This document shows positions 18,018 to 49,664 of a stretch of DNA of 64,000 bases, in pieces. The first letter of the stretch is position 1. Each line of letters opens with the position of its first letter. A model generated the notes under the pieces. That model was not told the origin of the DNA. It saw only the letters and a program-made list of their open reading frames with translations, and searched no databases. Source of the DNA: Terebella lapidaria (taxonomy: Eukaryota > Annelida > Polychaeta > Terebellida > Terebellidae); the NCBI GenBank assembly GCA_949152475.1, contig OX424560.1, positions 19,903,106-19,967,105 of the forward strand, read 5' to 3'. The translations under genes were made by a program, and so were the position numbers.

Positions 18018-20280
18018 TTGAATTTTCACTTGTACATTCCTTTTTGTCCTGCAGGCTATCGTGGTAGTCGACCACTGTCAACAATCATGGGAGAATGCGA
18101 GTGGACTTTAAAAAACAATGTTCAAACAATCAAACTGGAAGAGAGCTTGGCTCGTCAACAACAATCGCCAAAAAATCTACATGTTCTCCATTTGCAGAAC
18201 ATATATTACATGCAAGATTGCGAGAGAGTTATATTTAGCAATAAACATCCTTGGGTAATGAAACAATGTGTATTGTCACTGTCCTAGTGAGTTTGGATAC
18301 TTGGCACCTTACCAGAGTAAATACTGAATTGTGAAAATGAATACCTAACCGAAATAACTATAGACTATAGTAACTATGTGAAATAATAATCAAAGTCATG
18401 ATTTTAGTATCTAGACACCTTACTGAAATAACTACGGACAGTGAAGTAATTATTAAAGCAGACTACAATATCTGAATGTGATTCTGCTCGGTGGGCGATA
18501 CTGATAGAACACTTGGTGGAGTGTCAGTGCAGGGCTTCCAGGCTTACCAGGCAAGTGATTATGACACAAGTGCTACCACTACCGATAAAATCTCTTCTAA
18601 TCTCAACAAAGTACCACCACAGTGGGGCATATCGTCTTGCCCTGATACTTTGCTTTGTGTACATGTATGGACATTCTGAAACCGTCACATAATACAGAAG
18701 TATATAATCACTCTCAAAACAGGCCTCGGATAGATACAATTATAACCCAACCTCTAATTTGGCACATATTCAGTTTAGTACATCGGAAGCACGATATCAG
18801 GCGCTCATTACCATTTCTGCATGATAAGTATTAATAAAGTTGGATAGGGTACGAAATATTGAAGTAGAAATTCGACATTATATTGTAATGTGTTTACTGA
18901 GAATGCGTACGTACATTGTAAGCATTAATCTATTATAAGCATCATCTAAATAGTAGATAGTTACTGAGATATATCCCAAGTTCAAGGCAAGTTTTAGTTT
19001 TGGATTTTTTGTGGGTTTCAGTTGAAATAACCTTCTTCATGCCCTTCTATCATCAATGAAATATATAAAAAAGAGATCACACACAAACTGTAATGGTGAC
19101 CTTACAGTTATGTTATCAACTCAGTTGCCTGCAGGATATTGATTTGGTAGTCACAAATACTTATTTTACGAATTTCGCTTCGCGGTTGATGGGTATTGCA
19201 TGCCAATGACGATGCCAGAATGGTTGATGATAACACACGTTTAAAATGGAGTTTCTCGGTATTTCAGAACCTAAATATTCGAATACGCAGTGGACCAAAT
19301 GACCAAGTATAATCATTGGCTTACCTTTCCAAAGTTCCAAATTCATGGATTTTATTGGCTTATTGATAAGACTCTGTAATAGTAGTTGGAACTTGGTGCT
19401 CAGTCTGTTGAAATCAGTTTGGATCACGTGAACCGTTTACGACACCACAAGGACCAGTGCAATCGGGGTTTGGGATCTAAACTTGAAACGCTATCTTTGT
19501 TCCTTATCTTGTTGGTGTTGATGTTTAAAACACCAGGGAAATCAAGTTTTCTGCGGTTATAACAAAGAGTTTGTTAAGCAATTCATAAAACAAATATGTT
19601 TTCGTGTGTAATGTCATAATTCACTTGCCAGCCTATCGAGTTGTGTTTTCATGAACAATGCACAAAACACACAAAACACATTTTGGCCAATATAAACTTT
19701 TCCGAATACAAATATTACAGTATTTCAGAGTTCAATTCGTCATTGGATAGGAGCGGAGGAGGGGGGGGGGGGGGGGCAGTGAGTGGCTCTATAATGTCTG
19801 CAAATCTAAAATCAAAACATAATCTATCCACAACACTTCATTTCATTGAAAGTTTCCTCATTTCATTTGATGCAATTCGTCCATCGATTCCACTGGACAG
19901 TGACTGAATCACTGGACACGTGACCACTATTGACACTTGCGTCATCAGCCTGGATCCGGCGGCAATAAACCTCTCCATGGTTTGTTTGTGTGTAAACAGT
20001 CGTATACATTGTCAACACCGTACAAAGCCTTCTGGGAAATCATTGCTTATCCCGACCTTGATGCAGGCTATAACTCAACGGTATTTCCCAATGAATATGA
20101 CACCACTTATGTTGAATGAAACATGTACAGACGCAGCAAAGGGAGGATTGAACTGTGTCCAATTCAATAACTGCAATGCATGCATTAATCACGCTTCATC
20201 AAATACAAGTGTCAATGTTCAGATTTTTATACTGTCATTATGATAGTAGTTCATCCAGTCAAAATTGAATTTTAACTTGT
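18018..20280 (+). repeat. Small tandem duplication, right member
   Basis: This is the paralogue of 15180-18010 without the inverted P-R insert. The T portion (19450-20280) also aligns with unit B at 41395-41990. A G homopolymer of about 18 bases lies near 19757-19776 and a shorter one near 17509-17519 in the left member, so the tract has changed length since duplication. Confidence 0.65.
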
Positions 20281-21191
20281 ACAACGCCATTATACACGTC
20301 TACCGAGAGACAGTTTAATATGTCACACTACGAGTAATATACTCGAGGCACACTCTTTATGCCCCGGCCGAGAGTGGGCGTTATTGATGTTACAGATTCC
20401 AGTTGAAGGTCAACCAAATAACAAGTCACACAGAGAATGATGATCATCCATTGTCCATCAGCTAACAATGGCTTGCATGTCACAAATTTACTAATGACTC
20501 TGTGTTAGCCTTGATTTATTAGTCATATTTTCTCCTCCGTGTATGTCATAGTCTTTGCAAGGGCAAGGATGTTTGTTATCCATGGTTATACTTCACGGTG
20601 TTGTATCAACAAATGCCGTTCTTGTGGTGTATATTTGCGATGCGCAGTAACTGTAATGTGGACATGCGAATTGCACCGTAAACAAATAGTTGATATGCAT
20701 ACTCTGATTCAAATGTCATAGTAATCATTCAGAGGTAAATACTTTAAAGAATGGGTGACAAAATGAATGTCATTTCACTTTCTGTAAATGTTAATGTGCA
20801 GTCAATTCACACTGTTCGTGCATGTCAATCAACGAAATATATGATGCCACCTGTATTTAGACACCACTCAGCTGTATGTGAACTTCACAAAGCAAACACT
20901 TATCTTATACCATTCCAATACGCAAAACGGATAGGCCAATACGCAATGGATATACCCATTACCTACTTGACGAAATGGATTGCTTAAATTTGAAGGCAAT
21001 AAACAAGTATGCAACTCGTATATTATGATAGGATACTGACAATAATATGTTCCTGTTAAATTGCCATATTCCATGAAAAGGCAACCAACCGCAACGAACA
21101 GTCATTGGTAAAAGACGCGAGGCTAGGAGCAGACATCGGAGATAACTGGAGAGTGGCAGAATATTACTGAGATTTCATGCACTTTTTAATA

Positions 21192-24159: not shown

Positions 24160-24164
24160 CGATG
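24160..24164. repeat. Target-site duplication of the LTR element, left copy (CGATG)
   Basis: The five bases CGATG directly precede the left LTR and are repeated directly after the right LTR at 35277-35281. A 5-bp duplication is usual for Ty3/Gypsy integrases. Confidence 0.9.
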
Positions 24165-24900
24165 TGTAAAGTTATTGACTACCGTCCGCTCTTCGGGATC
24201 CTCGAGGATAGTCCTCTCTCATCCGAGTCCTTGCGGACGCGCATCCGCTATTCCAGATCCTTGCGGCAGGGCCGCTCACCGGAGGTCGCGGCGGACACGG
24301 TAACTACTTCAGCATTAACGGTAACCAGGTAACAGCCCACCCGACACTCCCAGGCCTACGGACACCGTTCAGAAACTAGTTCATCCCTACGGTGTTAACT
24401 GGCGGGGCCTGGCGAGCCGCGGTCTGCCTCGGGGACGGAACCCCGTACAGCCCGACATGCTGGCCAGAGCCTCTGTCACACGTCCCGGGAAGGGAGAGAG
24501 CTGGCGATCCACAGGGCCGAAGGCCCCCGAGTCAGCAACTTGTCTCTCCCAGCCCGGGCCTCCCCATGGAAATCGTCCCCAGGGCTCTAGGAGCCCACTA
24601 CTCACAAACAGGGAACACAAAGCTCATGGCGAGCCTCGTGTGCGTCCTGTCTCTCGATCTTGGACAATCTCCTCGAACGAGTCGCTTCCAGTGTATATAT
24701 AATACACCAGAAACTGTAGGGCGCACGCGAGGTCTAATCGATCCATTGTTATAGTTTACTGGAGCGTAAATTACAATACGTCGCCGTGGCAACGCACGCT
24801 CGAACGGAGCATGTCAAAACAAGGCCAAGTACGAAAAGGCCACATAAATGGCATTTATGTTTACAATCACCTGCCGCGTGCTTAGGGCAAAATCGCCACA
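24165..24900 (-). repeat. 3' LTR of the Ty3/Gypsy element
   Basis: 736 bp, nearly identical to 34541-35276. In element orientation it starts TGTGGCG and ends TTTACA. A minus-strand TATA-like stretch (TATATATA) lies at about 24693-24702 and would serve as the LTR promoter core. Small open frames inside the LTR are present in both copies simply because the LTRs are identical. Confidence 0.95.
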
Positions 24901-24914
24901 TTACCCCCTTCTTA
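24901..24914 (-). promoter_or_regulatory. Polypurine tract next to the 3' LTR
   Basis: On the element strand the LTR is preceded by AAGAAGGGGGTAA, a purine run in the position where plus-strand DNA synthesis is primed in LTR retrotransposons. Confidence 0.7.
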
Positions 24915-25303
24915 CAATGTTGGTCCCCAACATGTTCCGCCCGCGCCCAAAACAGCCAAAACCCGACGAAGGCTTCGCATGGCGGGGTCCGGAAGAAGGC
25001 AAGATGGCAACACCCGGAAGTCACGGCGCAAGACTAGGACTTTTGGAAGAATGGGGAACTACCCCCGGACTTACAGAGTAAACTATAATGCGCTTTGCAA
25101 TTTTGAATAAACCCTCATAAACAAGCTAAAATTTTGACCGAGGTGGTCCAAAACCGTGTGATGACCTTGGAAGGTCACCCATTATAAAAGGACGGTGTGC
25201 CGAGTCTTTGGAATATCTTTAAGGTTAAACTTTAAATTTAGAAATTTTGTAAAACGACACACCGAGTGATCAAAAGTGATAGTACCTCTAAAAATGTTGC
25301 CGA

Positions 25304-25356
25304 CCGCCCTGCCGGCCGGCTCCTCAGATCCGCAGAACGGGTCTGAGGCAGGGCGG
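25304..25356. other. Predicted stem-loop in the 3' non-coding part of the LTR element
   Basis: Outer arms CCGCCCTGC (25304-25312) and GCAGGGCGG (25348-25356) are complementary. Inside them CCTCAGATCC (25322-25331) pairs with GGGTCTGAGG (25339-25348) with one mismatch. It lies between the last open frame and the LTR, where an RNA element for export, packaging or 3' processing could sit. The function is inference. Confidence 0.45.
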
Positions 25357-25413
25357 AGCCGCGGAAGCGACTCCGGCACGCCGCCGCACAAGTGCAGCGA
25401 CGAGGCTAGCACC

Positions 25414-27972
25414 CTAGCCTTCCCCCATCGTCATGGGCTCCTCATCCGTGCCGCCTGTCTTGGGGTCTGGCGGCGGTGACGAGTCCCTACGCCGCGGAAG
25501 CAGCGGAGCCGGCAGAGTGAAAGCCGGCTGCACGGGCGGATGAGGCAGGCCCGGTGGAGCTTGCATGGGCTTTTGCGGTGAGCCCTGCAATCCGGGTCCT
25601 GACGGAGCCATCACGACGGAGGCCGGTAGAGAGGTCGCGCCGAGATCTGCAATGGCACGGAACATCTCCACCGTATCGCGAGTGCGCTGTGGACCGGCCG
25701 TCCGTTCTCCCCACACCTGGACTAGGTATGGGTAGATGGCCAGCTCCAAAGCGGCATCCGCGCGCCGGAGAGCCGCCTGGTTCAGGGCGGACGACTCGGG
25801 GTCATCAACGCCCTGGAGTAGGCGAGTCCGAGCGGCCTCGGCTTCGTCGAGACGACGCCGTAGCTGCTCATTCTCAGCCTCCAGGTGCTCCATCCGTGCG
25901 GCTACCTCTGGGGCGGGGGCGGGCGCCCCGGACTGCTCGGCAAGAGCGGCGGCCCGACCCTGGTCGAACGCGCGCCGCTCAATGACGGCCGACAAAGTCC
26001 GGTAGCTCTCTAGGCTCCACCGGGTGCCTTCCATGAGGCCCTGGTCGTATGCGAGATCGCATGCGACACGGGAGGCCTCGGCGCGGCACCGGCTGAACCG
26101 ATCCAGAGAGCTGTCCATCTCCGCCACAAGGTACTCCGCCGCTCGGGTGAGTCGACCACGCTGGGGGTGATCCCAGGGGTGCTCCTCCCGAGCGCGGACC
26201 AACGCGGCTACACCTGCGGACCCCAAGTCACGAATGGCTCGGGGCACCGGCAGGTTCACCAACACTGGGTCACCGGGGATCCGGTCCATACCATCGCGAC
26301 GATGGCCGACCGCCTGGCCTACAGACTCGCGGAAAGTCTCGTAGACGCTGGCGGTCGTGGGACCGAGCCTCCGGCGTACGTCTGCCGTGGCGTCGAGGGG
26401 GTCCAGGTCCAGGGAGGCGGTGCTTTGCCATCCTGCGGACGTCCCCTCAACTACCAACGAGGACGCGGACGTCGACCTCGAGAGAGGTACCGCACGTCCG
26501 CTACTGCTCGCAACCGAGGGAGTCACGCGTGGGGTCCTTGGCGGGACCACCGACGCGGCACTCGAGGAGGCGGAGGTGTCTGCCACCACCCGTCCCTCAG
26601 ACGGACCCGCGGGTACCGTCACCTCGAGCAAGCCCGGGAAATCCTCCTGAGTCAACACACCCGGAGACTGCAGGGGCGTCGTCCCGGCCGGAGTCTTTCC
26701 GGCGGACGAACTCTTCCCCTGAGTCTTTGGCTGGGGGCGCGGCTTAGGAGAAGCCACTCGTGTCTTGGCCGCGATCTGCGGCATCTCTGACACGACCATG
26801 GTCACCCGGTGCCGTTCTTCACCTGCCTGGGTCACCCGCGGTTGACGGACAGCCTCTGCTGCTGTCCGGGCAGCTTCCGACGCCTGAAACTCCACCGGGG
26901 TCTGGCCCATTGTCGCCGTCAGGCGAGCGGTGTAGCTCGAGCCCGCGGACACAACGCCAGACTCCTTCCAGGCATCGTCTATGACGCGCTGTGCAAAGCG
27001 CCATGGACCCCAGTGAAAGAACCGGTTCCTCGTCGTTCCTGACGTGGTCATGAACGACGCCACCCTCGGTGGTATGTATCCAAAATTGAATACAGGCCCC
27101 ACTTCATCACCAACGGTGTGAAGTCCCTCACCGCGGTGTGCACCCGAGCGGTGATTATTCAGGGCCTCCAAACTGGCGAAATATCGTTGCTGAGGTCTAC
27201 TGGAGTAGCACCTCTTGCAAACGAACATTTGCATCCAGGGGTAGTGGTACCCCGCAACATGTCGACTCAAGTGGTCGTAGGAAGGATACCTACGATCCCG
27301 GTTGAGCGCAAGGTGCGGGTCCTCATACCCGTCCAGGGATTTCGGACAGAGTTGGCATATTACACCCTCCTCTGTCTCGGGCGGCAACCCGACACGCTCC
27401 TCGTCCGTGAGTGGACGAGGCCGTGTGAAAGGCGTGTCGGCCGCCGCGCCGGCCGCCGCTGTGCGGCGCCCTTGCGGATCCCTGCCATACCGCGGGAGGA
27501 ACATGTGTCCCTGACGGACTCCAGGGAGTTCGGGGCCCATTTCGGCCCGCAGCCTCTGGATAGAGGGCTGCTCCGAGGACGACCGTTTCTTCTTTTTGGC
27601 CACCCCCGAACGATTCTCCGACCTGGTTTGTCGGGGCACACTCTTCCCGCGCGGGGGCGCGGCCCTCTGTTGCTGCGCAACGAAGGACCGCCGTCCCGCT
27701 TCCAGTGCGGCGTCAGACAGGTGGACCCCGTCTTTCTCCGCGCGCTTCCGGAGGAGTTCTAAACGAAGATCTCCCTCCTTCGGCACGGGACGCCCTCGGT
27801 CCACTGGACTCGACCCCACCTCCGCAGCTCCGGTAGGTTTCTTGGTACCGGAGGGAGAAGAAGAGGAGGTTCTTTTCGGTGCCTGGATAGGCACCCGCTT
27901 ACTGGAACCTCCCGCGCCTGGGCCGGATCCCGCGGAGGCGCCGCCCGCACCAGATCCCGAGGGATTAGGCAT
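25414..27972 (-). CDS. Accessory ORF of the LTR element: zinc-finger and coiled-coil protein, 852 codons
   Basis: This frame lies downstream of integrase, where some LTR elements carry env or other extra genes. The N-terminal 200 residues are rich in Ser, Gly, Lys and Arg, with a KKKKR basic patch near residue 127-130. Two C2H2-like fingers follow: C206-x2-C209 with H238-x4-H243, and C252-x2-C255-x18-H274-x4-H279. A conserved-looking block with FFHWGPWRFAQRVIDDAW lies near 318-335. A low-complexity Ser/Thr/Pro stretch covers about 400-520. A predicted coiled coil at about 688-722 contains HLEAENEQLRRRLDEAEAAR. The C terminus is Pro-rich. I see no signal peptide or transmembrane segment, which argues against env. 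The frame is open over its whole length with GC-rich codon use like gag, suggesting it has been under selection as protein. I do not recognise the family. Its start is the first Met and could be elsewhere. Confidence 0.7.
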   Translation of the reverse strand: MPNPSGSGAGGASAGSGPGAGGSSKRVPIQAPKRTSSSSPSGTKKPTGAAEVGSSPVDRGRPVPKEGDLRLELLRKRAEKDGVHLSDAALEAGRRSFVAQQQRAAPPRGKSVPRQTRSENRSGVAKKKKRSSSEQPSIQRLRAEMGPELPGVRQGHMFLPRYGRDPQGRRTAAAGAAADTPFTRPRPLTDEERVGLPPETEEGVICQLCPKSLDGYEDPHLALNRDRRYPSYDHLSRHVAGYHYPWMQMFVCKRCYSSRPQQRYFASLEALNNHRSGAHRGEGLHTVGDEVGPVFNFGYIPPRVASFMTTSGTTRNRFFHWGPWRFAQRVIDDAWKESGVVSAGSSYTARLTATMGQTPVEFQASEAARTAAEAVRQPRVTQAGEERHRVTMVVSEMPQIAAKTRVASPKPRPQPKTQGKSSSAGKTPAGTTPLQSPGVLTQEDFPGLLEVTVPAGPSEGRVVADTSASSSAASVVPPRTPRVTPSVASSSGRAVPLSRSTSASSLVVEGTSAGWQSTASLDLDPLDATADVRRRLGPTTASVYETFRESVGQAVGHRRDGMDRIPGDPVLVNLPVPRAIRDLGSAGVAALVRAREEHPWDHPQRGRLTRAAEYLVAEMDSSLDRFSRCRAEASRVACDLAYDQGLMEGTRWSLESYRTLSAVIERRAFDQGRAAALAEQSGAPAPAPEVAARMEHLEAENEQLRRRLDEAEAARTRLLQGVDDPESSALNQAALRRADAALELAIYPYLVQVWGERTAGPQRTRDTVEMFRAIADLGATSLPASVVMAPSGPGLQGSPQKPMQAPPGLPHPPVQPAFTLPAPLLPRRRDSSPPPDPKTGGTDEEPMTMGEG

Positions 27973-28862
27973 CTTGGCGTCTCCGGGTTTGGCGGAGGAC
28001 CCTTTCTGGCCACCCGGCTTAGGCGCCAGTGGCTGAGGTCCTCCGGACTTCGATCCGGTTTGAGGCGAGGGGCCGCCGGACTTCTTTTTCCGGTGCGGCC
28101 TCTTCTTCTTCTTCTTCTTCGGAGGCGAGGAGGCCGGGTCCGGGTCGGATCCGGCCTCAGATTGCCCGCGGTCAGAGGCTTCCAGCGCTTGCTGGGCTCT
28201 CCACTGCTTCTGAGCAATCTCAGAACGGGCGATGTAAACCCGTCATCTTGGTTCTCGGTCTCCTTCGAGCCAGACTCCTGTTCCTGAGGCGGCGCTTGGG
28301 ATGCGGCTTCCTCAGCCGCGTCAACCTGCTCCGCCCAAGTCCCAGGGGCCTTCTGGTCGTGCGGACCAGACTCCGCAGGTGCGGACACCGAGGAGTTCTC
28401 GGCGGAACCGGTGTCCGGACGGCTACGGCCATCCGGACGGGTTTCCGCACGAGTACTCTCATCCGGACCCAAAGACGCAAGCATCTCCGGGTGCGGATGC
28501 AACTCAATGTCCACATCCACGAGTCCCGCACCACCGCAGTCCATCACCTCTTCCATACGGGGAAAAGGCGACAGATTCAAGAGCTGCTCGGCGCCTGCCG
28601 TGGCCGAGTCACTCTCTGCGGGGCGGTCCTCCGCGACCTCGCTCTCGGACTCGGTTCCTGTGTAAGAACCAGAGCCGGAGCTGGATTCCGCAGAACCCAC
28701 ATAGGCTCCCCATGGGATGTCCTCGCGGTCATCATCCTCGGGCCTAGACTGGGGTCTCGAGTACGAGTTACCGCGCTCAAGAGACCCCTCTTCCCTCCCT
28801 ACATCACCTTCCCAACCATCGCTGTCTTCAGACATATCAAGCGCTCTAAACGCCGTAAACAC
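27759..28862 (-). CDS. Accessory ORF of the LTR element: acidic then Arg-rich protein, 367 codons
   Basis: A second extra frame, upstream of and overlapping the zinc-finger frame by about 210 bp in a different reading frame. The first 200 residues are acidic and Ser/Glu-rich (SEDSDGWEGDVGREEG, SGSGSYTGTESESE). A basic patch of consecutive Arg residues (RLRRRRRRRG) follows in the C-terminal third. No enzymatic motif, signal peptide or membrane segment is visible. Composition alone suggests a disordered, possibly nucleic-acid-binding protein. The C-terminal part that overlaps the other frame is less certain to be real. No family was recognised. Antisense frames of similar length are shadows of the GC-rich composition. 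Confidence 0.5.
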   Translation of the reverse strand: MFTAFRALDMSEDSDGWEGDVGREEGSLERGNSYSRPQSRPEDDDREDIPWGAYVGSAESSSGSGSYTGTESESEVAEDRPAESDSATAGAEQLLNLSPFPRMEEVMDCGGAGLVDVDIELHPHPEMLASLGPDESTRAETRPDGRSRPDTGSAENSSVSAPAESGPHDQKAPGTWAEQVDAAEEAASQAPPQEQESGSKETENQDDGFTSPVLRLLRSSGEPSKRWKPLTAGNLRPDPTRTRPPRLRRRRRRRGRTGKRSPAAPRLKPDRSPEDLSHWRLSRVARKGPPPNPETPRCLIPRDLVRAAPPRDPAQAREVPVSGCLSRHRKEPPLLLPPVPRNLPELRRWGRVQWTEGVPCRRREIFV

Positions 28863-29139
28863 TGGGAGTCAGATCCGCAGATCTGTCTCCACCAGTGCCG
28901 AGCGCTTGAATGACCAGAAGGTGTCGAGTTACATCGATTATAGGCATCAAGTGTTGGCAGTTATACTGCACACGCATCGTATGACGCGTTCCCGTGGAAA
29001 CGTCTGTTCACTGCATCTACCCGATCGACAGACAAAAGGACGTTTTACACTCCCGCATTCCCATACACGCATCTCCCCCCGGTGACTCCTATCGTGCCAT
29101 GTATACGGGTGGCTTGTGTACACAAGCCATCCCGGGGGA

Positions 29140-29620
29140 ACCCGCTAAAATACTACAGTAATTAACAGCAGTCATTAGCAATAGCTTTCGCACTGGCGAT
29201 CAATGACGTGAAGTTAATCACCCTCGCAGGTTAAAGATTGTATACAATGTATCAAAAAGCCAAACTACTTGTGGGTGTTACGATTATGTCACCCTATCAG
29301 CAGCGATAAATAAAAATTTAACACCGCTCAAGCAGCAATGAAAATAAATCCACCACCGCTTGCATTCTTTTCATAGATCACGGCATACAGCCTTCGATAC
29401 AATGTACACAATCTCCTACACCCCTCTTGCGAAAGCAGAAATCTCCCGATTTCTTACTCTCTATTGCACCAAGGACAAGAGATATATCACTAAACTTTCT
29501 CATATATTTGATAAATGAGTAAGAATAGCATTTCCACGGGAAACACGCACACACTTGTGGCTTATAATCCTCCCATAAATAATAAATGAGATGGAAAATA
29601 AACAAAATCACTCCCCATAG
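29140..29620. other. AT-rich island between integrase and the accessory frames
   Basis: This stretch is markedly poorer in GC than the rest of the LTR element and holds no sizeable frame. It could be a non-coding spacer, a regulatory region for the downstream frames, or foreign sequence acquired by the element. I see no inverted repeats or target duplication that would mark it as a separate insertion. Confidence 0.5.
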
Positions 29621-29829
29621 TCGCTGGCACGCTTACAGGGCGATCGGACATACCCATGACGTCCGGACAGACAATCGGGCGCCCTATGGGCGTTTGCAAA
29701 GCGCCCACTAGCATCCCCGACGTACTGCCCGGCCGCGGAGCGGTGCCCGGTCCAGCCCAGAGCCTCCTCAAACGACTACCGGAGCGCGGAGCCGATAGAT
29801 TAGACGCGGAGCCGGCATGGTCCATAACC

Positions 29830-31311
29830 TCAATGGTTAGGGGGCGAACCCTTCATACAGGGAGCATCATAGTAGCGCACCTTGTCGCCTTCCGCAAAAG
29901 CTGGCCTACCCTTAGCATGGGCGTCATAGCCTCGCTTCTGCCGGATGGCAGACTTGTCCAGGCGCGCGCGCGCGAAATCATGGGCGTTCGCCAGGGCGCG
30001 GCAAATCCACTCCACGTACTCCGGACCGCACTGGGGTACTGCGCCGGTCTCTGCCGCAGTTGGATACATAATATCCACGGGCAAATTTAGCTCCCGGCCG
30101 TACAACATCGCGTGCGGAGTAACTCCGGTCGAAGAGTGGACCGACGACCTGTACGCCATTAAGACATACGGGAGGTGGTCATCCCAATCATTCGCACGAT
30201 CGTTCACAAAGGCCGCCAGCATATTGAGGACCGATCGATTAAAGCGTTCGACCTGGCCATCAGACTGGGGCCTGTAGGGGGTGGTCCGCACCTTGGTACT
30301 GCCTAGCGTCTGTGCTAGGTTTCGGAACAGGTTGCTCTCAAATTGCGTGCCCTGATCCGAATGTACCTGTTTAGGTACCCCATGGTACACCACCCATCTA
30401 TTCACCAATAACGGAGCTACCTCGTCCGCAGTCTGGCGGCGCAGTGGATAGGCGTCGGTATACTTGGTAAAATAGTCGGATATCACCAGGATGTACCGGA
30501 AACCGCGCGGGGTGACCCGGTGGGTATCCAGTATATCCAAAGCTATCCGATCAAACGGCGCGCCCGCCTTAACCGTGGTTAAGGGGTGGCGGCCAGGAGT
30601 CGGAACTCCTTTGCGAGCTTGACACCGAGGGCAGGCTGCGCACCACCGTTGCACGTCCAAGCTGCTACCAGGCCAATGAAAGTGCTGTTGTAGCCTATGG
30701 ACGGTCCTCCGGATTCCCAAGTGACCGGTCACCCGGAGGTCATGCAACTGGTGGAGTACTTCTTTCCGCAGCTCCGCCGGAAGCACCAACTGCCATATTG
30801 GAGGCAGTGGGGTCGGTGGCTCATAGCGCCGGTATAAGAGGCCATCCCTCAAGGAGAGTCGTTCCCACTGAGATACTAGAGACAAAGTCTCCTCCCTGTA
30901 GGTCTTTCGCTCATCCTTCGAGGGCTTCTGGCCGGCCTCAAGGGCTGTAATTACCGGTGCCAGAGCTCTGTCAGCTCTTTGCGTCGCAGCTATCTGCGCC
31001 GGAGAGTAGCCACCCAAGTAATTAGGCTCCTCATCCGTCGCGTCCGGCACCGGGGCCACTACCAAGGCCTGCCGGAGTCCCGAGAAGGCGTTAGCCTGCT
31101 CGGCGGACCAAACAAAATCGGCGCCCTTTTCCGTGAGGATAGTAAGGGGACGCGCGATCTCCGCAAAGCCGCGAATAAACCTGCGGTGGTAGCTCGCGAA
31201 GCCCAAAAAGGACCTCACGTCCGCCACGTTGCAGGGCGGAGGCCATTTCTGTACGGCCGCCACCTTTGCGGGGTCTGGTCTCACTCCGGTGCCCGTTACC
31301 ATGAAGCCCAA
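29830..31311 (-). CDS. Pol part of the LTR element: end of RT region plus integrase
   Basis: Residues 12-85 match the tail of a Ty3/Gypsy reverse transcriptase (KVAAVQKWPPPCNVADVRSF, LGFASYHRRFIRGFA, RPLTILT). The integrase follows. Its HHCC zinc-binding domain uses H190, H197, C224 and C227. The catalytic core has D259, D319 (HSDQGTQFES) and E355 (DGQVERFN), giving D-x59-D-x35-E spacing. The C-terminal part has YDAHAKGR and GDKVRYYD, as in the basic end of Gypsy integrases. The integrase would insert the element DNA into the host genome. This part of pol belongs to a broken element. Family assignment to Ty3/Gypsy rather than BEL/Pao rests on the RT tail and integrase motifs. Confidence 0.9.
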   Translation of the reverse strand: MGFMVTGTGVRPDPAKVAAVQKWPPPCNVADVRSFLGFASYHRRFIRGFAEIARPLTILTEKGADFVWSAEQANAFSGLRQALVVAPVPDATDEEPNYLGGYSPAQIAATQRADRALAPVITALEAGQKPSKDERKTYREETLSLVSQWERLSLRDGLLYRRYEPPTPLPPIWQLVLPAELRKEVLHQLHDLRVTGHLGIRRTVHRLQQHFHWPGSSLDVQRWCAACPRCQARKGVPTPGRHPLTTVKAGAPFDRIALDILDTHRVTPRGFRYILVISDYFTKYTDAYPLRRQTADEVAPLLVNRWVVYHGVPKQVHSDQGTQFESNLFRNLAQTLGSTKVRTTPYRPQSDGQVERFNRSVLNMLAAFVNDRANDWDDHLPYVLMAYRSSVHSSTGVTPHAMLYGRELNLPVDIMYPTAAETGAVPQCGPEYVEWICRALANAHDFARARLDKSAIRQKRGYDAHAKGRPAFAEGDKVRYYDAPCMKGSPPNH

Positions 31312-32422
31312 GTACAGGATTTCCTGCGCGGGAAGACGCGGGAATAGCAGTAGCTGCTATGCATCCGCGCTTCAGTACAATCGGAGCATCCGTAGGATTC
31401 ACCACGAGGATGGGCATCGCGCGGGGGTTGGACATGACCAGGGCCCCACCCAGCACGAGCCCAGTTCTTGCGGCGAAACTGCTCACGGGTTGCACTATAC
31501 ACGGTCGACCATCGAGGGGCATGCGGGGACGACGCGGCCTCGTCTCGATGATCATCTCACTCATCGGTGGCACTACTACAGTGCGCGATGTCCGCATCTG
31601 GAATGAATGCATCGGGCCCGAGCGGAAGAGGAAGTGTGTGTCCTCTCCCATCCGGAACTCGCCAGCACTAAAGTTGGCAATCACCCGGTGGGCCCGTAGA
31701 AAATTCATCCCAATAATCCCGGCCGCTCCGATATCCGCCACGATCGTCTCTGTCAGATACACCTTGTCCCCAAGGGTAATAGGCAGATCGATGATGCCAT
31801 GGATACCGATGCGGTTGTCTCCCGCTCCGTAGAGCTTATACGGTCCGGGATCCCGCAACTCGAGGTTGCGGAGCGCGGGCTCCTTCCTAAACGTTCCGGC
31901 GGCCACGAGGGTCACCTCCGAGCCTGAGTCTACGAGGAACCGGACCGGCTCCCGTCCGAAGGACAGGGGCAGGTACCAGCAAGGGTCCCTCACCAGCGCG
32001 CAGGTAGGGCGATACCTTTCGCACGCGCTGGGCTCATCTACGGAGTCCTCGCCATCCGCCTCAGCCGCGGAGGAGCTGGACTGATCTCCAAGGACTACTT
32101 CCGGAGAAGTCATATCTACTTGGGGTTCGTCCTGCTCATCAGCGGGTGGGGCGGCATCGTTTGCCACCGAACAACTATCCCCGGACGTAGTGTTGGTCGC
32201 CACCACGTCCGGATCTAGTTTCCCTGTCGCGGGTTCCGGTTCTGTTGTCCCGGAGGACCAGACCGGAAGGAATTCCTCCGTTGCGGGCCAGGAAGGTTTC
32301 CCTGGTATCCGCGCGACCGCAGGCGTTCCAACAACTCTGGACACTTCAGCCAAAAGTGTCCCTGCTTTCCGCAGAAGTAGCAGGGACGGTTCTGGGCCGG
32401 TCCGGAGGTGAACGCGCAACAT
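31091..32422 (-). CDS. Protease region of the LTR element
   Basis: The frame holds an aspartic protease fold typical of retroelements. The catalytic motif is FLVDSGSEVTLV with D165-S166-G167, and the second signature IIGMNFL is at 236-242, equivalent to the usual ILG-x-D/N-F-L. An acidic linker precedes it at about 60-135. It overlaps gag by about 200 bp in another frame, the layout in which Ty3/Gypsy elements make Gag-Pol by programmed frameshifting. The protease would cut Gag and Pol polyproteins in the particle. The frame belongs to a broken element. Confidence 0.85.
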   Translation of the reverse strand: MLRVHLRTGPEPSLLLLRKAGTLLAEVSRVVGTPAVARIPGKPSWPATEEFLPVWSSGTTEPEPATGKLDPDVVATNTTSGDSCSVANDAAPPADEQDEPQVDMTSPEVVLGDQSSSSAAEADGEDSVDEPSACERYRPTCALVRDPCWYLPLSFGREPVRFLVDSGSEVTLVAAGTFRKEPALRNLELRDPGPYKLYGAGDNRIGIHGIIDLPITLGDKVYLTETIVADIGAAGIIGMNFLRAHRVIANFSAGEFRMGEDTHFLFRSGPMHSFQMRTSRTVVVPPMSEMIIETRPRRPRMPLDGRPCIVQPVSSFAARTGLVLGGALVMSNPRAMPILVVNPTDAPIVLKRGCIAATAIPASSRAGNPVLGLHGNGHRSETRPRKGGGRTEMASALQRGGREVLFGLRELPPQVYSRLCGDRASPYYPHGKGRRFCLVRRAG

Positions 32423-34428
32423 TCTGCGGGTCCCGGAGCTTCGATCCCGGCGCAGTGCGCAATCATCTGCGCGGCGCCGAGGTCATATTCCTCCATGTCG
32501 TACTCGTCCGAAGGCGAGCACGGCGCGGCGACTGGTGCCGCATGTGCGGGCGCCCCTGTAGAGGGTGCCGGCGCACTAACCCGCTGCGGGGTAGGTTCCC
32601 TGGCGGGTTCCCGGATGACCGGGTCCTGCCACGGGGTTACCTGCGATGCTTTAACCGGAGGAGGAGTCGCCGCCTGCGCGGGTACAGCCGAGGCCGGAGC
32701 CGGGGCTGGAGGCAACTGTCTAGGGCGGACAGCCACCTCAAGCGCAAGCGCGGAGTCTATTGCCTCCTCCATCGATCGCTTTTCATGGGTGGCCAGCCCG
32801 TACGCTAGGTGGTAAGGCTGGCCATCGATGAACTGATCGATCAGCATCGTCTCAAACCGTCTGAAGTCCATGTCCGGAAAAGCTCTCCGGCCGAGTATGC
32901 GTAGGTTGAACGCATAGTCTGTCACGGACTCAGTCGGCTGGCGGATACGCGCCTTGAACTCTCGTTCAGACTGCCGCCGATTGGTCGTCGGCGTGAACAG
33001 CAGGCGAAGTTGACGAGCAACCTCGCCGAACGTCACTGTTCCCACCGGCAGACACGGCATCACGCGGAGAGCTTTTCCTTCCAAGCTCCCCACGAGGACG
33101 TGTCCAGCTTCATGCTGGGACCATCCTTCGTACACGGCGGTACGCCATACCTGGAGCAAGTAGTCCTCCAAGTCGGCGTTATCCCCGTTGAACCGTTTCC
33201 GCCACGAAGAGTGGTCGGGCCCGTCATCGCGTTTGCTACGCGCCCGACGTGCGGTCCCGGCTCCGGGGTCGTCCGTGTACAGCGGCAAGTTCCGCGCGCT
33301 TCCTGCGCCTGCGGCGGAGTCTGCCGGAGCAAACATCGACGTCGCGGACGGAGGAGCAGGGAAGCTCACGTTTGCCGCCGGGGTCATTCCCGCTAAAAAC
33401 CCACTCTGGCTAGGTGCGGGCGGGGCTCCCATCGAACCTACTGGGTAGGCTCCAGAAGGGGCGGCAAAGCTTGGGGCCGAAGCCACCTGTTGCCACTGCC
33501 CGTCCGACACACTGTACGTGCCAGGGTAAGTCGGCCACGCGGCTTGCGCTCCAACCGTCGGAACGGTCGACGCGGTCGCCAACGTGGTGCCTCCGAGCCG
33601 CGGGGCAGGCGCGGGTCCCATTGCGGGGGCCACTGGCGCCTGCGGACTCGGCAGGACTTGGGGAGGGGCTACTGGCCCAGACATCCCCGGACTTGAGATG
33701 GCCGACGGGTCAACGCTCGAAGGCGGCTGATTCCGCTTGAACAGTACAAGCGCCTCGGATATCAGCCACCTCTCCCTCTCCGTCAAAGGCCCCGAGTTGC
33801 CTTGTGACAGCGGAGAGGGGGAACGGTTCCGCCAGTCTGATCGTCCCTGATGGGGCGACCGGGCGCGGTCATAGCGCCCTAGAGGAGCCAGCTCACTCAG
33901 AGTGTGGGTGAGCTGGTCCATCCCGCCTGACGCGGACTGCCTGGATTCACGGCCGGGAGCCCTTGCAGGAGCTCTTCCGGCTGGATGTGGCATCCAGTAC
34001 TGCTGATCCGCTTGCCCGGAGGTACTCGGGCCGGCTACCACTCGATCCCGGACATCCGGAGATGTCCCCTGAAAGAGCGTCGCCTGCCACGACTGCCGTC
34101 CGGACTTAGGCGGGCGCGGGGTAGCGCCGTTGCCAGCTCCACCTACTGCGCCTAACGGATCAGGGCCAGGCCCTGATAGCAATCTCTGTTGCTGCCCCTC
34201 AGGGCGCGACTCTACGTCCGAAGACGGAGCCAGGGACGCCGGAGTCGTCTCCGCGGACGGGGTCTTGTCCACGGAGGTTTCTGCGCGTTCCTTCCGGCCA
34301 CCGGAGTCATCCGGAGACGTCTCACGGTGGCTGTCGCGCGACCGGGTGTGGTCCGCGACATTTCCACCCTTATCCCTCCCCTTGGGTTCATCGGCCTTAT
34401 CTTTGGCCTTGTCTCTTTCTTTTGCCAT
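32215..34428 (-). CDS. gag: Gag of the LTR element, 737 codons
   Basis: This is the first frame after the 5' LTR, starting about 112 bp inside it at MAKERDKAKDK. The N-terminal half is long, Pro/Ser/Gly-rich and low in complexity. A Retrotrans_gag-type capsid region follows at about residues 410-580 (WRKRFNGDNADLEDYLLQVW, LRLLFTPTTNRRQSEREFKA, ESVTDYAFNLRILGRRAF, MLIDQFIDG). A CCHC zinc knuckle sits near the C terminus: C683-x2-C686-x4-H691-x4-C696 (CYFCGKQGHFWLKC). Gag would form the particle and bind the RNA through the knuckle. The reading frame looks open throughout. It is longer than many Gypsy Gags because of the disordered N-terminal half. Confidence 0.9.
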   Translation of the reverse strand: MAKERDKAKDKADEPKGRDKGGNVADHTRSRDSHRETSPDDSGGRKERAETSVDKTPSAETTPASLAPSSDVESRPEGQQQRLLSGPGPDPLGAVGGAGNGATPRPPKSGRQSWQATLFQGTSPDVRDRVVAGPSTSGQADQQYWMPHPAGRAPARAPGRESRQSASGGMDQLTHTLSELAPLGRYDRARSPHQGRSDWRNRSPSPLSQGNSGPLTERERWLISEALVLFKRNQPPSSVDPSAISSPGMSGPVAPPQVLPSPQAPVAPAMGPAPAPRLGGTTLATASTVPTVGAQAAWPTYPGTYSVSDGQWQQVASAPSFAAPSGAYPVGSMGAPPAPSQSGFLAGMTPAANVSFPAPPSATSMFAPADSAAGAGSARNLPLYTDDPGAGTARRARSKRDDGPDHSSWRKRFNGDNADLEDYLLQVWRTAVYEGWSQHEAGHVLVGSLEGKALRVMPCLPVGTVTFGEVARQLRLLFTPTTNRRQSEREFKARIRQPTESVTDYAFNLRILGRRAFPDMDFRRFETMLIDQFIDGQPYHLAYGLATHEKRSMEEAIDSALALEVAVRPRQLPPAPAPASAVPAQAATPPPVKASQVTPWQDPVIREPAREPTPQRVSAPAPSTGAPAHAAPVAAPCSPSDEYDMEEYDLGAAQMIAHCAGIEAPGPAECCAFTSGPAQNRPCYFCGKQGHFWLKCPELLERLRSRGYQGNLPGPQRRNSFRSGPPGQQNRNPRQGN

Positions 34429-34517
34429 TCTTCGAGTTGTCCTTGAGGAGCGGGCGATCCCCAGGGACGAAGGAGGCTACAACGCTGTGACGGTAGGCTG
34501 CGATGGAACACTGTCGG

Positions 34518-34540
34518 ACTGATCCTGGTCACGGCACCAA
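34518..34540 (-). promoter_or_regulatory. Primer-binding site of the LTR element
   Basis: On the element strand, immediately inside the 5' LTR, the sequence reads TTGGTGCCGTGACCAGGAT. TGG is the complement of the universal tRNA CCA end, so this fits a primer-binding site one base from the LTR. I could not assign the tRNA. Confidence 0.65.
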
Positions 34541-35276
34541 TGTAAAGTTATTGACTACCGTCCGCTCTTCGGGATCCTCGAGGATAGTCCTCTCTCATCC
34601 GAGTCCTTGCGGACGCGCATCCGCTATTCCGGATCCTTGCGGCAGGGCCGCTCACCGGAGGTCGCGGCGGACACGGTAACTACTTCAGCATTAACGGTAA
34701 CCAGGTAACAGCCCACCCGACACTCCCAGGCCTACGGACACCATTCAGAAACTAGTTCATCCCTACGGTGTTAACTGGCGGGGCCTGGCGAGCCGCGGTC
34801 TGCCTCGGGGACGGAACCCCGTACAGCCCGACATGCTGGCCAGAGCCTCTGTCACACGTCCCGGGAAGGGAGAGAGCTGGCGATCCACAGGGCCGAAGGC
34901 CCCCGAGTCAGCAACTTGTCTCTCCCAGCCCGGGCCTCCCCATGGAAATCGTCCCCAGGGCTCTAGGAGCCCACTACTCACAAACAGGGAACACAAAGCT
35001 CATGGCGAGCCTTGTGTGGGTCCTGTCTCTCGATCTTGGACAATCTCCTCGAACGAGTCGCTTCCAGTGTATATATAATACACCAGAAACTGTAGGGCGC
35101 ACGCGAGGTCTAATCGATCCATTGTTATAGTTTACTGGAGCATAAATTACAATACGTCGCCGTGGCAACGCACGCTCGAACGGAGCATGTCAAAACAAGG
35201 CCAAGTACGAAAAGGCCACATAAATGGCATTTATGTTTACAATCACCTGCCGCGTGCTTAGGGCAAAATCGCCACA
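34541..35276 (-). repeat. 5' LTR of the Ty3/Gypsy element
   Basis: 736 bp, nearly identical to the 3' LTR. The TATA-like core lies at about 35069-35078 on the minus strand, and transcription would run toward gag. LTR-to-LTR difference is about 0.7%, which points to a recent insertion. Confidence 0.95.
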
Positions 35277-35281
35277 CGATG
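35277..35281. repeat. Target-site duplication of the LTR element, right copy (CGATG)
   Basis: Exact repeat of 24160-24164. After it the sequence continues TAAAGGTTTTT, matching TTAAAGTGTTT at 47384-47394 in unit B, so the flanks join cleanly. Confidence 0.9.
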
Positions 35282-36950: not shown

Positions 36951-37559
36951 TGATCACGCTAACGGAACCTTCAGACGGATGACGACAGGAGTGCTAAATA
37001 AATACCGACTATAAAAGCGATTTACAATGATAAAGTGACGTTTAGGGAAGGAGAAAAGTGGATTTGTACACTTGTTATTTACTCAGTTATATCAGACGCG
37101 CTATTCGAGCTAACTGCATCTTGAACTATTTTGCAGGCGTATGGATGAGTGATCAATAATATGAAAGTTACTATTCTTGTCGTGTAGTAGTAATATATTT
37201 ATGGCATTTCAAATATCAAAAATAAACTGAACATCATAAACTGAAAACCATGTTACTAGTTGTATTGAGCAGAATTACACCGAATGACATTGCAGAAGGG
37301 CTGGAGAAATTGGTTCCTGACATCAGGAACTAGACCGAGCCATGGTTAACGTGCTGAAAGTTTTGTCAACCAGGCAATGGAGCTACACCTGTAGACTGTC
37401 CTTTTTGACACACAAGAAGAATTGGACTAGATATCCATTCAGAAGTCGACCAGGAATGTCCTGTGGTTCTCTTGTTTTTTTTTTGTTCCGTATGAATGAA
37501 TTTCAAGAAGGACACACGACTGTCAGGTTTTTCTTGTGAATGTGTTTTTGTCCTCCAAT

Positions 37560-37770
37560 GAAGCACCAACATTTTCGTTGTCCACGTGACTAAATCTTGA
37601 GGTTGTTTGGATGAGTTACCGCTATCAGTGTCGTCTGGAATGTGTGTACTTAGTTGCTTGGGCGAGGAAAGTGCACTTGCGTCACTTTCGTAGTCATCGG
37701 GAACTGAAATGTATGCTGGGTCCGTTTGTTCATCCCTCGGAGCTGGTATGCGATCCCTATCTTCTGGCAC
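37560..37770 (-). other. Candidate exon (unit A), acidic tail-like peptide; paralogue in unit B
   Basis: On the minus strand the frame contains PAPRDEQTD, AYISVPDDYESDASALSSPK and SGNSSKQPQDLVTWTTK. Unit B at 49665-49928 keeps the same frame with mostly conservative replacements (TYIPVPDDYDSDASAL). The composition and the YIPV/YISV motif resemble a cytoplasmic receptor tail, but this is inference. An alternative frame is also open over the same bases in both copies. I did not find a phase-consistent splice model, so it may be a pseudogene. Confidence 0.3.
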
Positions 37771-46770: not shown

Positions 46771-49664
46771 TTAAGCGCATAAAGCACTTGCAATGCATTG
46801 ATAAGACTATGACTACATAATGGCCACTAACCTGACGTTTTCTTGCACAACATGTACTCAAGTCGCCCTTTGATATGACTGTTTCAAATAATATTTATTG
46901 CCTGTGCAAATAAAATTCACCAATGATTAACCATAACACAAAGGTTCATTGAAAGCAGGCAATCATATCAAGATGATAAGGGTGATCCTGGGTTGTAGAC
47001 ATTGATATAACCACAGGCAGTATAATTTCTAATTGGCCTTCGACTGATTAACGACCTGCTTGGCAATGCAGCTGGTCGACGTTATCAGTTTGTGATAGCT
47101 GGTTAATATATTGACAGAATAGTGGTAAATGGATTCACAACTTAGGGAGTCACGCTGATAAACAATTACTCATTGGGACTGTTTATGGACTCACCATTCC
47201 AAATTGTCTGAAAACATATATTAGAATTGTAATCGTTGTTTATCGCTCCAGTTTGTTCATTGGTTTTCAATGAACAGTTTCAATGAACGAATGCAGTACC
47301 AATTTTAAAAACGGCACATTGGCAAAACTGCAAGACAAGTATGGTGGACAAACCCCTGTTTGGTTGACAATTTGATTTACGAGTTAAAGTGTTTCCCATC
47401 ATTTTTTTCCCACACATGTTCATATTATTAATGATAAATGCATTGACCAATAATAAAAATACTTTCTGTGCCAACATAGTGACCAACAGTACGATGACCG
47501 GTTGATCGTTCCTCTATCAAGATCCCAATTTAGGTATTATACTGCTTCCATGTTATCGATGTTCGATACCTCAAATAAACCTCATAATCTTCATATAAGG
47601 ATCATCGATAATGAAAATTGTTTGCACTGGCAGCAAATATTAATTGGAGCAGTCACATCAAAAGACAACTTGAGAACATGTTTACTCCTGTGAAAGGTAC
47701 TCCTGTGACCGTGGCACATTGTCTGACAATCTGTTTGCCCATCCATTCATGGAGAGTGATAATTAACAAATCAAAACGTGGTTATTCTTAGTAATATTTG
47801 CTAATTATGAACAACATGTTACTACAGTGGCATTATGTAGCTATATATTAACCACCACATAGATGAATACCATGCCATACAATTAGGAACACTTGCAATA
47901 AAACGTAGGTTCTAAGGTGAATGGCTAGTTCCTGGAATACATTTTCATTGGTAAAATGTGCCTCGCCCGCAGCAGTTCATTTGCTTACTAAACCAATAGA
48001 ATATCGTGCCATGGTTGACAAAAGAATTTGAGACAAAGAAGCTATACAGATTCGATAAACTACAAATAACTGCAGTTCAATAAATTTCCCATTCCAGACG
48101 TGACCCACGAAGTTTCTAAATATGCACAGACTACATAATAACATATAATGCAAAGTATCTCATTGGCAAAAGGATATATCGGCCTATAAAATTCATAGTA
48201 TGGAGACAAACAGAGCAAAACATAAATATTGTATCTGCAGACACACTGGCGTCATGGCGGTAAACAAGCTGGTCAAATATCAATTTTTCAGAGCGCAAAT
48301 TGGACGTTGGTAAAAAAACAAGTTTGCTTCCTATAACCAGCATGATTACCATTCCAACTTGTGGTGATAAACGTGACCTGCGCACTAGTAGTGATGTTGA
48401 TTTTTATCCAGTGGTAGTATATATTGAATAGTTGTGGCTTTGATTGCCAACTAATAATGTTGGCATGTGGCTTTCATGCAAACATTCTTCCTAGATGGCA
48501 TCTCGAACTGTCATAAATCTGTTACTGAATATGTCGCTCGTTTACCCACTGGTCGTATTTCAAGAACGAATTCACTTGTAGAATGCAAAATAATTACGGG
48601 GCCTGTTGCATCGTAATCACCATCATCACACGGATTTTAGTATTGACGACTCAAAAGATAGCTCAAACATATGTATTTTGTGACATACACAGTCACAAAA
48701 AAAAAATAGTTTTCATATTACTCTTTGCATCAGCCAAATTTTATCATACTACACATTGCCGCATATGAATGTTCACATTGCAATAATCCATACCAACTAA
48801 CGCTGGTTAAAATAAGAAGAACATCAAAAAAAACTATGAATTGTTTAGTCATGGAGATTTTCAGAAGATATCACCAGCGTACCACCCAAGTCGAAAATCT
48901 GACAATACATGATTGTGATTGAAATTGTGAAGTTGTACCACAACATACTGGTCTTGGAAAACAGGCCAAGAAAAACAAGATTGACCAAATATATTTACGT
49001 CAGCAATGCAAGCCGTCTACAGCCCACACACAAATTGATCACACTAACGGGACCTTGAAATGGATGACGACAGGAGTTCTAAATAAATACCGACTATAAA
49101 AGCGATTCGCAATAGTAAAGTGACGTTTAGGGAAGGAGAAAAGTTGATTTGTGCACTTGTCATTTGCTCGGTTATATCAGACGGGCTATTAGAGCTACCT
49201 TCATAGTCAACTGGAGAGTGCTCAGCGTCACCAGTGATAGCCATCGATCGCTTCTTTTACATGCCTAAATTTGGGTTATTTTTGTCAATATTTCAGTATT
49301 TTGCAGGGGTATGGATGAGTGATCAATAATAGGAAAATTACTATTCTTGTCGTGTAGTAGTAATATATTTATGGCATTTTAAATATCAAAAATAAACTGA
49401 ACATCATAAACTGAAAACCATGTTACTAGTTGTATTGAACAGAATTACACCGAATGACATTGCAGAAGGGCTGGAGTAATTGGTTCCTAATATCAGGAAC
49501 TAGGCCGAGCCATGGATAACGTGCTGAAAGTTTTGTCAACCAGGACCAGGATTGTTCTGTGGTTCTCTTGTTTTTTTTTTTGTTCCGAATGATTGATTTC
49601 AAGAAGGACACACGACTGTCGGTTTTTTCTTGTGAATGTGTATTTGTCCTTCAATGAAGCACCA

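What the first reader, a model, noticed from the sequence alone, without database searches (positions are those of the whole stretch)
25414..28862. Two extra open frames beyond integrase in a Ty3/Gypsy element, one with two zinc fingers and a coiled coil
Seen: about 3.4 kb of GC-rich, open sequence on the element strand between integrase and the 3' LTR, encoding an acidic/Arg-rich 367-codon frame and an 852-codon frame with two Cys2-His2-like motifs, a defined central block and a coiled coil. Known: extra 3' genes in Gypsy elements are most often env; here there is no signal peptide or membrane segment. Inference: this may be a non-env accessory protein (nuclear, RNA- or DNA-binding, silencing suppressor, or captured host gene) of a little-described Gypsy lineage.
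Basis: partly seen in the sequence, partly recalled or inferred. Interest (0 to 1): 0.75.

Follow-up and report, generated by a model that had tools for sequence, protein, structure and literature searches.

The report
Extra gene in a jumping element
A young virus-like jumping element carries one extra large gene that selection keeps intact but that resembles nothing in the databases searched, and sister elements without the gene appear to share the same integrase, which makes it a natural test case for what such optional genes do.

Summary
In this copy of a Ty3/Gypsy element (minus strand, 24165-35276; 736-nt LTRs, 5 differences; duplication CATCG; empty paralogue at ~47.39 kb) one frame between integrase and the 3' LTR is broken near 28,240. 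Of 148 scored copies in the same genome, 89 have an open frame of at least 1100 codons, mostly 1152-1190. The Arg-rich half is an out-of-frame reading of a lysine run. The protein (~1148 aa) has an acidic N-terminus, lysine runs, two C2H2 fingers (ligands kept in 22-23 of 23 copies), a Pro/Ser-rich linker and a helical C-terminus; no membrane segment and no relative in the libraries searched. dN is below dS in 251 of 253 pairs (ratio about 0.49).

Unexpectedly, 10 of 20 further integrase copies lack the gene, yet over 245 codons their integrases are not separable from those of carriers (0 fixed differences, 12 shared polymorphisms). So the gene seems to sit in an exchangeable 3' module. Best reading: a nuclear, nucleic-acid-binding accessory protein, dispensable in cis, perhaps supplied in trans. 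Coding status is firm; function is inferred. New variant of a known kind.

The parts
24165..35276 (-). Ty3/Gypsy LTR retrotransposon copy (defective)
   Evidence: LTR pair, target duplication and pre-insertion paralogue
34541..35276 (-). 5' LTR, 736 nt, TG...CA
   Evidence: 99.32% identical to the 3' LTR, 5 differences
24165..24900 (-). 3' LTR, 736 nt
35277..35281 (.). target-site duplication copy (CATCG on the element strand)
24160..24164 (.). target-site duplication copy (CATCG on the element strand)
34522..34539 (-). primer binding site next to the 5' LTR; resemblance to a tRNA-His 3' end is recalled, not from a call
   Evidence: sequence
32215..34428 (-). gag, about 737 aa, CCHC knuckle near its end
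   Evidence: (PNMA E 0.01 and Retrotrans_gag E 0.014, both below cut-off)
32181..32224 (-). gag-pol -1 frameshift-like site: GGGAAAC directly before the gag stop, 5 nt, 12-bp perfect stem
   Evidence: pol lies in the -1 frame
31305..32217 (-). protease and linker part of pol
   Evidence: gag-asp_proteas E 0.0018, below cut-off; sequence DSGSE
29830..31311 (-). remnant of the reverse transcriptase end, RNase H lost, integrase zinc domain and core; C-terminus lost
28836..29829 (-). AT-richer interval between integrase and ORF3, 22 upstream ATGs, one 20-bp palindrome
28835..28915 (-). stretch with a strong predicted hairpin that ends next to the ORF3 start codon
   Evidence: z -5.72 (not unique in this element)
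28236..28835 (-). ORF3, first part: acidic N-terminus (first reading frame)
25414..28242 (-). ORF3, second part: lysine runs, two C2H2 fingers, Pro/Ser-rich linker, helical C-terminus (second reading frame; frame change near 28,240 in this copy)
27136..27357 (-). two C2H2 fingers of ORF3
   Evidence: (below Pfam cut-off)
25603..26415 (-). helical C-terminal part of ORF3 with a probable coiled coil
   Evidence: mean pLDDT 48.9 only; also conserved in other copies
25290..25420 (-). row of five predicted GC-rich hairpins from the ORF3 stop; the part from 25382 on is also present in ORF3-less elements
24901..24912 (-). polypurine tract
   Evidence: sequence
47383..47390 (.). pre-insertion site in a host paralogue (approximate)

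Best explanation
SHOWN: ORF3 is one protein-coding gene of about 1148 codons, sense to gag-pol, between integrase and the 3' LTR of a multi-copy Ty3/Gypsy family; this copy is broken by one frame change. Codon evidence shows purifying selection. Of 20 further elements sampled, 10 lack it and carry about 500 nt of other, apparently non-coding sequence there, while over 245 codons their integrase genes cannot be told apart from those of carriers. INFERRED: the protein enters the nucleus (lysine runs), binds nucleic acid through two C2H2 fingers, assembles through its coiled-coil C-terminus and acts through its acidic N-terminus, so that it works like a retroviral regulatory or accessory protein (control of element transcription, RNA fate or host silencing). 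It is not needed in cis. ORF3-less elements may use it in trans from co-expressed carriers, with which they exchange 3' ends by template switching between co-packaged RNAs. It is probably made from a spliced or separately started mRNA.
For: Open frame of at least 1100 codons in 89 of 148 scored copies (counted), complete open frame in 23 of 40 loci read. dN<dS in 251 of 253 pairs, median ratio about 0.49; variants shared by two or more copies pN/pS 0.43 against 0.60 for singletons; without the first 100 residues pN<pS in 252 of 253 pairs, pooled ratio 0.49. Same place in 10 of 10 copies examined with an LTR behind; 28 of 150 listed integrase copies have a listed ORF3 downstream on the same strand, 9 of them 4153-4157 nt on, range 2933-8616. 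Zinc ligands kept in 22-23 of 23; a lysine run of variable length in 23 of 23; 49 D/E to 14 K/R in the first 207 residues. Integrase of 10 carriers and 10 non-carriers: 0 fixed differences, 12 shared polymorphisms in 735 columns, 539 of 2000 permutations separate the groups at least as well; the tree needs 6 label changes (shuffled mean 6.7). 22 ATGs between integrase and ORF3 speak against plain scanning of genomic RNA; a donor-like GTGAGT at 34981 and an acceptor-like CAG at 28864-28862 (one of five acceptor-like sites) exist.
Against: No relative by sequence: Pfam, PDB (best E 0.03, not convincing), protein collection (only candidates sharing most words were scored), viral contigs and prokaryote contigs, each by six short peptide patterns. 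Models are poor (mean pLDDT 34.9 and 48.9), so no fold search was run. The fingers score below Pfam's cut-off (zf-C2H2_4 E 0.029, 15.5 bits against 27). ORF3 evolves faster than integrase in the same 8 copies (pN/pS 0.48 against 0.21, the latter on 184 codons), and no part stands out by ratio (0.37-0.60); the low variation of the helical part is low at silent sites too, so it need not be stronger constraint. The codon model dips to about zero over the fingers, and synonymous codon usage of the second part is neutral (0.3 bits) though its other five frames are negative. Integrase copies were listed by likeness to this copy's integrase, so a separate non-carrier lineage with a diverged integrase would not be seen. 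Nuclear entry, binding, mRNA and trans action are untested.
Confidence: 0.45

Rival explanations
1. ORF3 is a second structural protein: a particle or RNA-packaging factor that uses its fingers as an additional nucleocapsid and its helical part for assembly.
For: The ORF3 frames score mostly positive under a codon model trained on gag and integrase; the helical part is nearly the same in all 148 listed copies (98% or more to this copy, a list ranked by likeness).
Against: No similarity to gag (best E 0.77); gag already has a CCHC knuckle; 10 of 20 sampled elements lack ORF3 while all 20 have long pol frames, 1293-1556 codons.
Confidence: 0.2
2. ORF3 is a counter-silencing protein against host small-RNA or chromatin defence, acting for all co-expressed elements of the family.
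For: Faster evolution than integrase (0.48 against 0.21); optional in cis; integrase pool shared with non-carriers.
Against: No motif known for such activity was found; nothing functional was tested.
Confidence: 0.15
3. A passenger: a captured host or viral gene carried without function.
For: No relatives found; a 13-nt direct repeat brackets ORF3 (15 of 2000 simulations reach that length), as capture by template switching could leave.
Against: Purifying selection, also on variants shared between copies; open frame kept in 89 of 148. The ORF3-less junction does not match a simple loss between the repeats.
Confidence: 0.08
4. A degenerate or unusual envelope or fusion protein.
For: Position and sense match env-like genes.
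Against: No hydrophobic segment (highest 19-residue mean 1.16); finger motifs and lysine runs; no env family in Pfam.
Confidence: 0.02
5. Two separate genes, or one gene read through a programmed frameshift near 28,240.
For: Both frames are open and overlap in the window; the gag-pol junction of the same element has a standard-looking -1 site.
Against: 23 of 40 loci read straight through in one frame; no in-phase slippery heptamer near the switch in the window.
Confidence: 0.02
6. GC-rich chance open frames.
For: High GC lowers stop frequency.
Against: 942 codons against at most 480 in 500 simulations; selection.
Confidence: 0.01

Closest known systems
Sense additional ORFs between pol and 3' LTR of plant LTR retrotransposons (aORF-3S, env-like; review PMC7264820, passages read)
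   Same: Position and orientation; extra gene beyond gag-pol.
   Different: Described there as env-like, some with membrane segments; ORF3 has none and has C2H2 motifs.
Retand/Grande accessory ORFs, TRP28 domain (PMC11963269, passages read)
   Same: Gene between pol and 3' LTR with predicted DNA binding; Grande's product is reported there as nuclear.
   Different: Antisense to gag-pol, plants, TRP28 domain; no such match in ORF3.
sORF1 and sORF2 of Drosophila MDG1-group elements (preprint PMC11952523, abstract and section 7 read)
   Same: Accessory genes of animal Gypsy-type elements without env; sORF1 is reported as subnuclear; two members carry disrupted versions.
   Different: About 110 and 70 aa, upstream of gag; sORF2 is a membrane protein.
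Planarian Burro and other LTR elements with captured ORFs (review PMC6431247, passages read)
   Same: Accessory coding sequence in animal Gypsy-like elements; capture downstream of pol is mentioned.
   Different: Other domains (TRAF-like, apoptosis- and ubiquitin-related, env) and mostly inside a giant polyprotein.
Regulatory proteins of complex retroviruses (Tax, Bel1/Tas type; recalled)
   Same: Late gene near the 3' LTR that acts in trans (only inferred for ORF3).
   Different: No sequence relation found; ORF3 is much larger (recalled sizes).
Troyka elements (PMC12440569, abstract and passages read)
   Same: Animal LTR elements close to Gypsy.
   Different: CG...CG ends and 3-bp duplications; here TG...CA and 5 bp.

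Membership tests
Ty3/Gypsy LTR retrotransposon | Paired LTRs with TG...CA ends and short target duplication | tested here: met
   736-nt LTRs, 5-bp CATCG, empty paralogue
Ty3/Gypsy LTR retrotransposon | Integrase after reverse transcriptase, nearest to Ty3 | tested here: met
   Best PDB match Ty3 Gag-Pol, E 8.3e-29, collinear; reverse transcriptase and RNase H mostly missing in this copy
Ty3/Gypsy LTR retrotransposon | Placement in a named Gypsy lineage by a reverse-transcriptase tree | not tested
   Most of it is deleted in this copy and no reference set was at hand
Errantivirus or other env-bearing Gypsy element | Extra 3' gene encodes a membrane glycoprotein | tested here: not met
   No hydrophobic segment, no env family
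Troyka | CG...CG ends and 3-bp duplications | tested here: not met
   TG...CA and 5 bp
C2H2 zinc-finger protein | C-x2-C ... aromatic-x5-L-x2-H-x4-H with conserved ligands | tested here: met
   Two motifs, ligands kept in 22-23 of 23 copies
C2H2 zinc-finger protein | Profile match above curated cut-off | tested here: not met
   15.5 bits against 27; loops after the cysteine pair are longer than usual (usual length recalled)
C2H2 zinc-finger protein | Binds zinc and nucleic acid | not testable with these tools
   needs protein
Retand-type accessory protein | TRP28 (Transposase_28) domain, antisense orientation | tested here: not met
   Sense; no such Pfam match
Accessory (non-gag-pol) gene of an LTR retrotransposon | Recurs in the same place in many copies and is under selection | tested here: met

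The most novel reading that the evidence does not exclude
ORF3 is a trans-acting regulatory protein shared within one interbreeding element population: carriers and non-carriers draw on a single gag-pol pool, recombine at the 3' end, and the optional gene is kept because it serves the pool (a public good among retrotransposons), or because it is favoured only in some cell types or hosts.
Probability: 0.2. Interest if true: 0.72.

Novelty: new variant of a known kind. Interest (0 to 1): 0.52.

Why it matters
What non-env accessory genes do in LTR retrotransposons is largely open. Here one host genome holds at least 148 listed copies with a large accessory gene and, in a sample of 20 further elements, 10 without it on what looks like the same integrase background. 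That is close to a natural knock-out comparison: transcripts, small RNAs, copy-number growth and insertion sites of carriers and non-carriers can be compared in the same animals. The protein would also be a new family.

Tried and rejected
Chance frame, two genes, env and programmed frameshift in ORF3 were considered and rejected (see rivals). RNA structure next to ORF3 looked striking (z -5.72 and -4.66), but the whole element is unusually structured (mean z -1.25 in 213 windows against -0.13 in 438 flank windows; the window at the ORF3 start ranks 11th of 368), so nothing is built on it. The 13-nt direct repeat bracketing ORF3 was tested as a scar of loss: the ORF3-less copies carry the motif once, as the 3' copy, with the 3' copy's own left neighbour, so no simple excision. 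A nested insertion was sought by inverted repeats around ORF3: only matches of 8-12 nt. Rfam gave nothing, ARAGORN no tRNA. Single-sequence models were too poor for fold searches. Searches of viral contigs with integrase, gag and the primer site and of prokaryote contigs with integrase found no relative. An integrase ratio of 0.03-0.04 was not used as the yardstick because those copies were ranked by protein likeness; the copies were picked by ORF3 instead. A first integrase tree (12 carriers, 3 non-carriers) had weak support and was replaced. The first 100 columns of the ORF3 codon alignment are unreliable (pS 0.62); one search gives figures without them. One carrier (L087's integrase) was left out to save letters. 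Nine answered literature searches (titles and abstract starts seen, 109 empty) listed no animal Gypsy element with such a gene; Repbase reports and subscription journals are not in that library.
Full report
What is there. The window holds one GC-rich insertion in a ~38% GC host region. It lies on the minus strand, 35276 to 24165, with 736-nt LTRs that differ at 5 places and a 5-bp duplication CATCG. A duplicated host segment in the same window (85-87% identical beside the site) lacks it; joining the two flanks gives a continuous alignment across ~47.39 kb. No second copy of the element was found in the window.

The copy. From 5' to 3': gag of about 737 aa with a CCHC knuckle, then pol in the -1 frame. 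The junction looks like a standard frameshift site: GGGAAAC directly before the gag stop, five bases, a 12-bp perfect stem. A protease signature follows; then pol is damaged. The end of the reverse transcriptase and the integrase zinc and core domains match Ty3 in order, but the rest of the reverse transcriptase gives no match, about 120 residues that lie between these parts in Ty3 are missing, and about 1.3 kb after the integrase core is absent compared with copy L045. This copy is therefore not autonomous.

ORF3 is one gene. A codon model trained on gag and integrase favours the first frame from the start codon at 28835 to ~28,240 and the second frame beyond it, though it falls to about zero over the finger region; best switch points are 28,241-28,211. 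No in-phase slippery heptamer lies there. The host genome decides it. Of 40 loci read (L001 is this window), 23 carry a complete single frame ending in the same residues, 22 of the 23 starting MSESSDGW. Of 148 copies scored with the C-terminal domain, 89 have at least 1100 open codons, the commonest lengths being 1159 (30), 1189 (20), 1190 (13) and 1152 (10). Copy numbers are lower bounds: 108 of 2181 first-look candidates were scored and 148 of 2001.

It is under selection. Among the 23 complete copies, 253 pairs, dN is below dS in 251, median ratio about 0.49; summed differences at codon positions 1, 2, 3 are 7377, 4741, 9535. The first 100 columns align poorly; without the first 100 residues pN is below pS in 252 of 253 pairs, the pooled ratio is 0.49 and the positions are 5928, 3458, 6929. 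Variants shared by two or more copies have pN/pS 0.43, singletons 0.60, as expected if selection acts before insertion and decay follows. In the same 8 copies a 184-codon part of integrase gives 0.21 and ORF3 0.48: constrained, but less than integrase. The 17 of 40 loci without a complete frame, this copy among them, were left out of these tests. Pairs are not independent.

What the protein looks like. Acidic N-terminus (49 D/E, 14 K/R in 207 residues), a lysine run in 23 of 23, two C2H2 motifs whose eight ligands are kept in 22-23 of 23, an aromatic block, a Pro/Ser-rich linker and a helical C-terminus with a probable coiled coil (the helical model has a mean pLDDT of 48.9 only). No membrane segment. 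No convincing relative in any library searched. The collections that could be scanned for DNA are viral or prokaryotic, so this does not show absence from other animals. The fingers fall below Pfam's cut-off.

Place. In 10 of 10 copies examined for this, ORF3 is followed after 524-527 nt by an LTR 98.4-99.6% identical to this copy's 3' LTR (513 nt in the window), and the ~960-nt interval before it is conserved at 98-99%. Integrase lies within the 3.1-kb piece upstream in 8 of the 10; in the other two the listed integrase is 5.3 and 8.6 kb upstream. Of 150 listed integrase copies, 28 have a listed ORF3 within 9 kb on the same strand, 9 of them at 4153-4157 nt, range 2933-8616.

An optional module. 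I took 20 of the 122 integrase copies without a listed ORF3, chosen by hand, all with pol frames of 1293-1556 codons, and read 1.5 kb where ORF3 should lie: 9 carry ORF3, 10 have the end of the element there instead, 1 (L080) shows the interval at a shifted place. In the 10 ORF3-less copies the interval is shared to window position 29409 (85-92%), then weakly (73-78%) to 29129 or 29070, then 500-560 nt show no similarity, then the element resumes at 25382, about 30 nt after the ORF3 stop, at 92-96% into the LTR. In 6 of the 10 the LTR match stops about 450 nt into the LTR, so LTR parts vary as well. Yet the integrase genes of 10 carriers (this copy among them) and 10 non-carriers show 0 fixed differences and 12 shared polymorphisms in 735 columns, similar distances within and between groups (medians 0.0136, 0.0095 and 0.0109), 539 of 2000 permutations at least as separated, and a tree that needs 6 label changes, of which well-supported branches force 2. 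The simplest account is one integrase pool with 3' ends exchanged by recombination during reverse transcription. Only 245 integrase codons were compared, and the copies were ranked by likeness to this copy's integrase, so this says nothing yet about gag or reverse transcriptase, nor about lineages with a diverged integrase.

Mechanism. The architecture (acidic, basic, fingers, coiled coil) fits a nuclear nucleic-acid-binding regulator; this is inference. Between integrase and ORF3 lie 22 ATGs, so a separate mRNA is likely; a donor-like site (34981) and five acceptor-like sites exist, one of them 27 nt before the start codon. Because 10 of 20 sampled elements lack ORF3 and have long pol frames, ORF3 does not seem to be needed in cis. 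Whether it acts in trans is open.

Comparison. Extra genes between pol and the 3' LTR are known in plants (PMC7264820, PMC11963269; passages), and MDG1-group elements of Drosophila have two small accessory genes, one subnuclear and one a membrane protein (PMC11952523; abstract and one section). LTR elements are also reported to capture ORFs downstream of pol (PMC6431247; passages). ORF3 shares the role of an extra gene, not the sequence or architecture. Nine answered literature searches listed no animal Gypsy element with a gene like this; many reports are not in that library. I therefore rate it a new variant of a known kind.

Noticed in passing
32181-32224: Standard-looking -1 frameshift signal at the gag-pol junction: GGGAAAC directly before the gag stop, 5-nt spacer, 12-bp perfect stem.
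   Followed up: partly
24901-34540: The element's sense strand is predicted to be more structured than the flanking host DNA (mean z -1.25 in 213 windows against -0.13 in 438; antisense -0.97).
   Followed up: partly
29110-29129 and L089-L098: A 20-bp perfect palindrome in the interval (4 of 200 simulations reach it) lies in a conserved block; ORF3-less copies show a shorter hairpin there with a different stem sequence between the same flanks (rows compared by eye; the computed fold did not choose this pairing).
   Followed up: partly
28869-28881 and 25324-25336: A 13-nt direct repeat brackets ORF3; the 10 ORF3-less pieces have the motif once, as the 3' copy.
   Followed up: partly
L073, L074, L078, L081, L082, L088: In 6 of 10 ORF3-less copies the LTR stops matching about 450 nt in: LTR parts also seem to be exchanged.
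   Followed up: no
24901-34540: The palindrome TCCGGA occurs 17 times against 3.2 expected from base composition.
   Followed up: no
35729-40421 with 47809-52542; 19782-21190 with 41464-42897: Host segmental duplications, 85-90% identical in these parts, one of which gives the empty site.
   Followed up: partly
61159-61560: Weak zf-RVT match (E 0.054): possible remnant of a non-LTR retrotransposon.
   Followed up: no
L002/L003, L016/L017, L047: ORF3 or interval stretches occur twice within 1-3 kb in some copies: tandem duplication inside elements, or an assembly effect.
   Followed up: no
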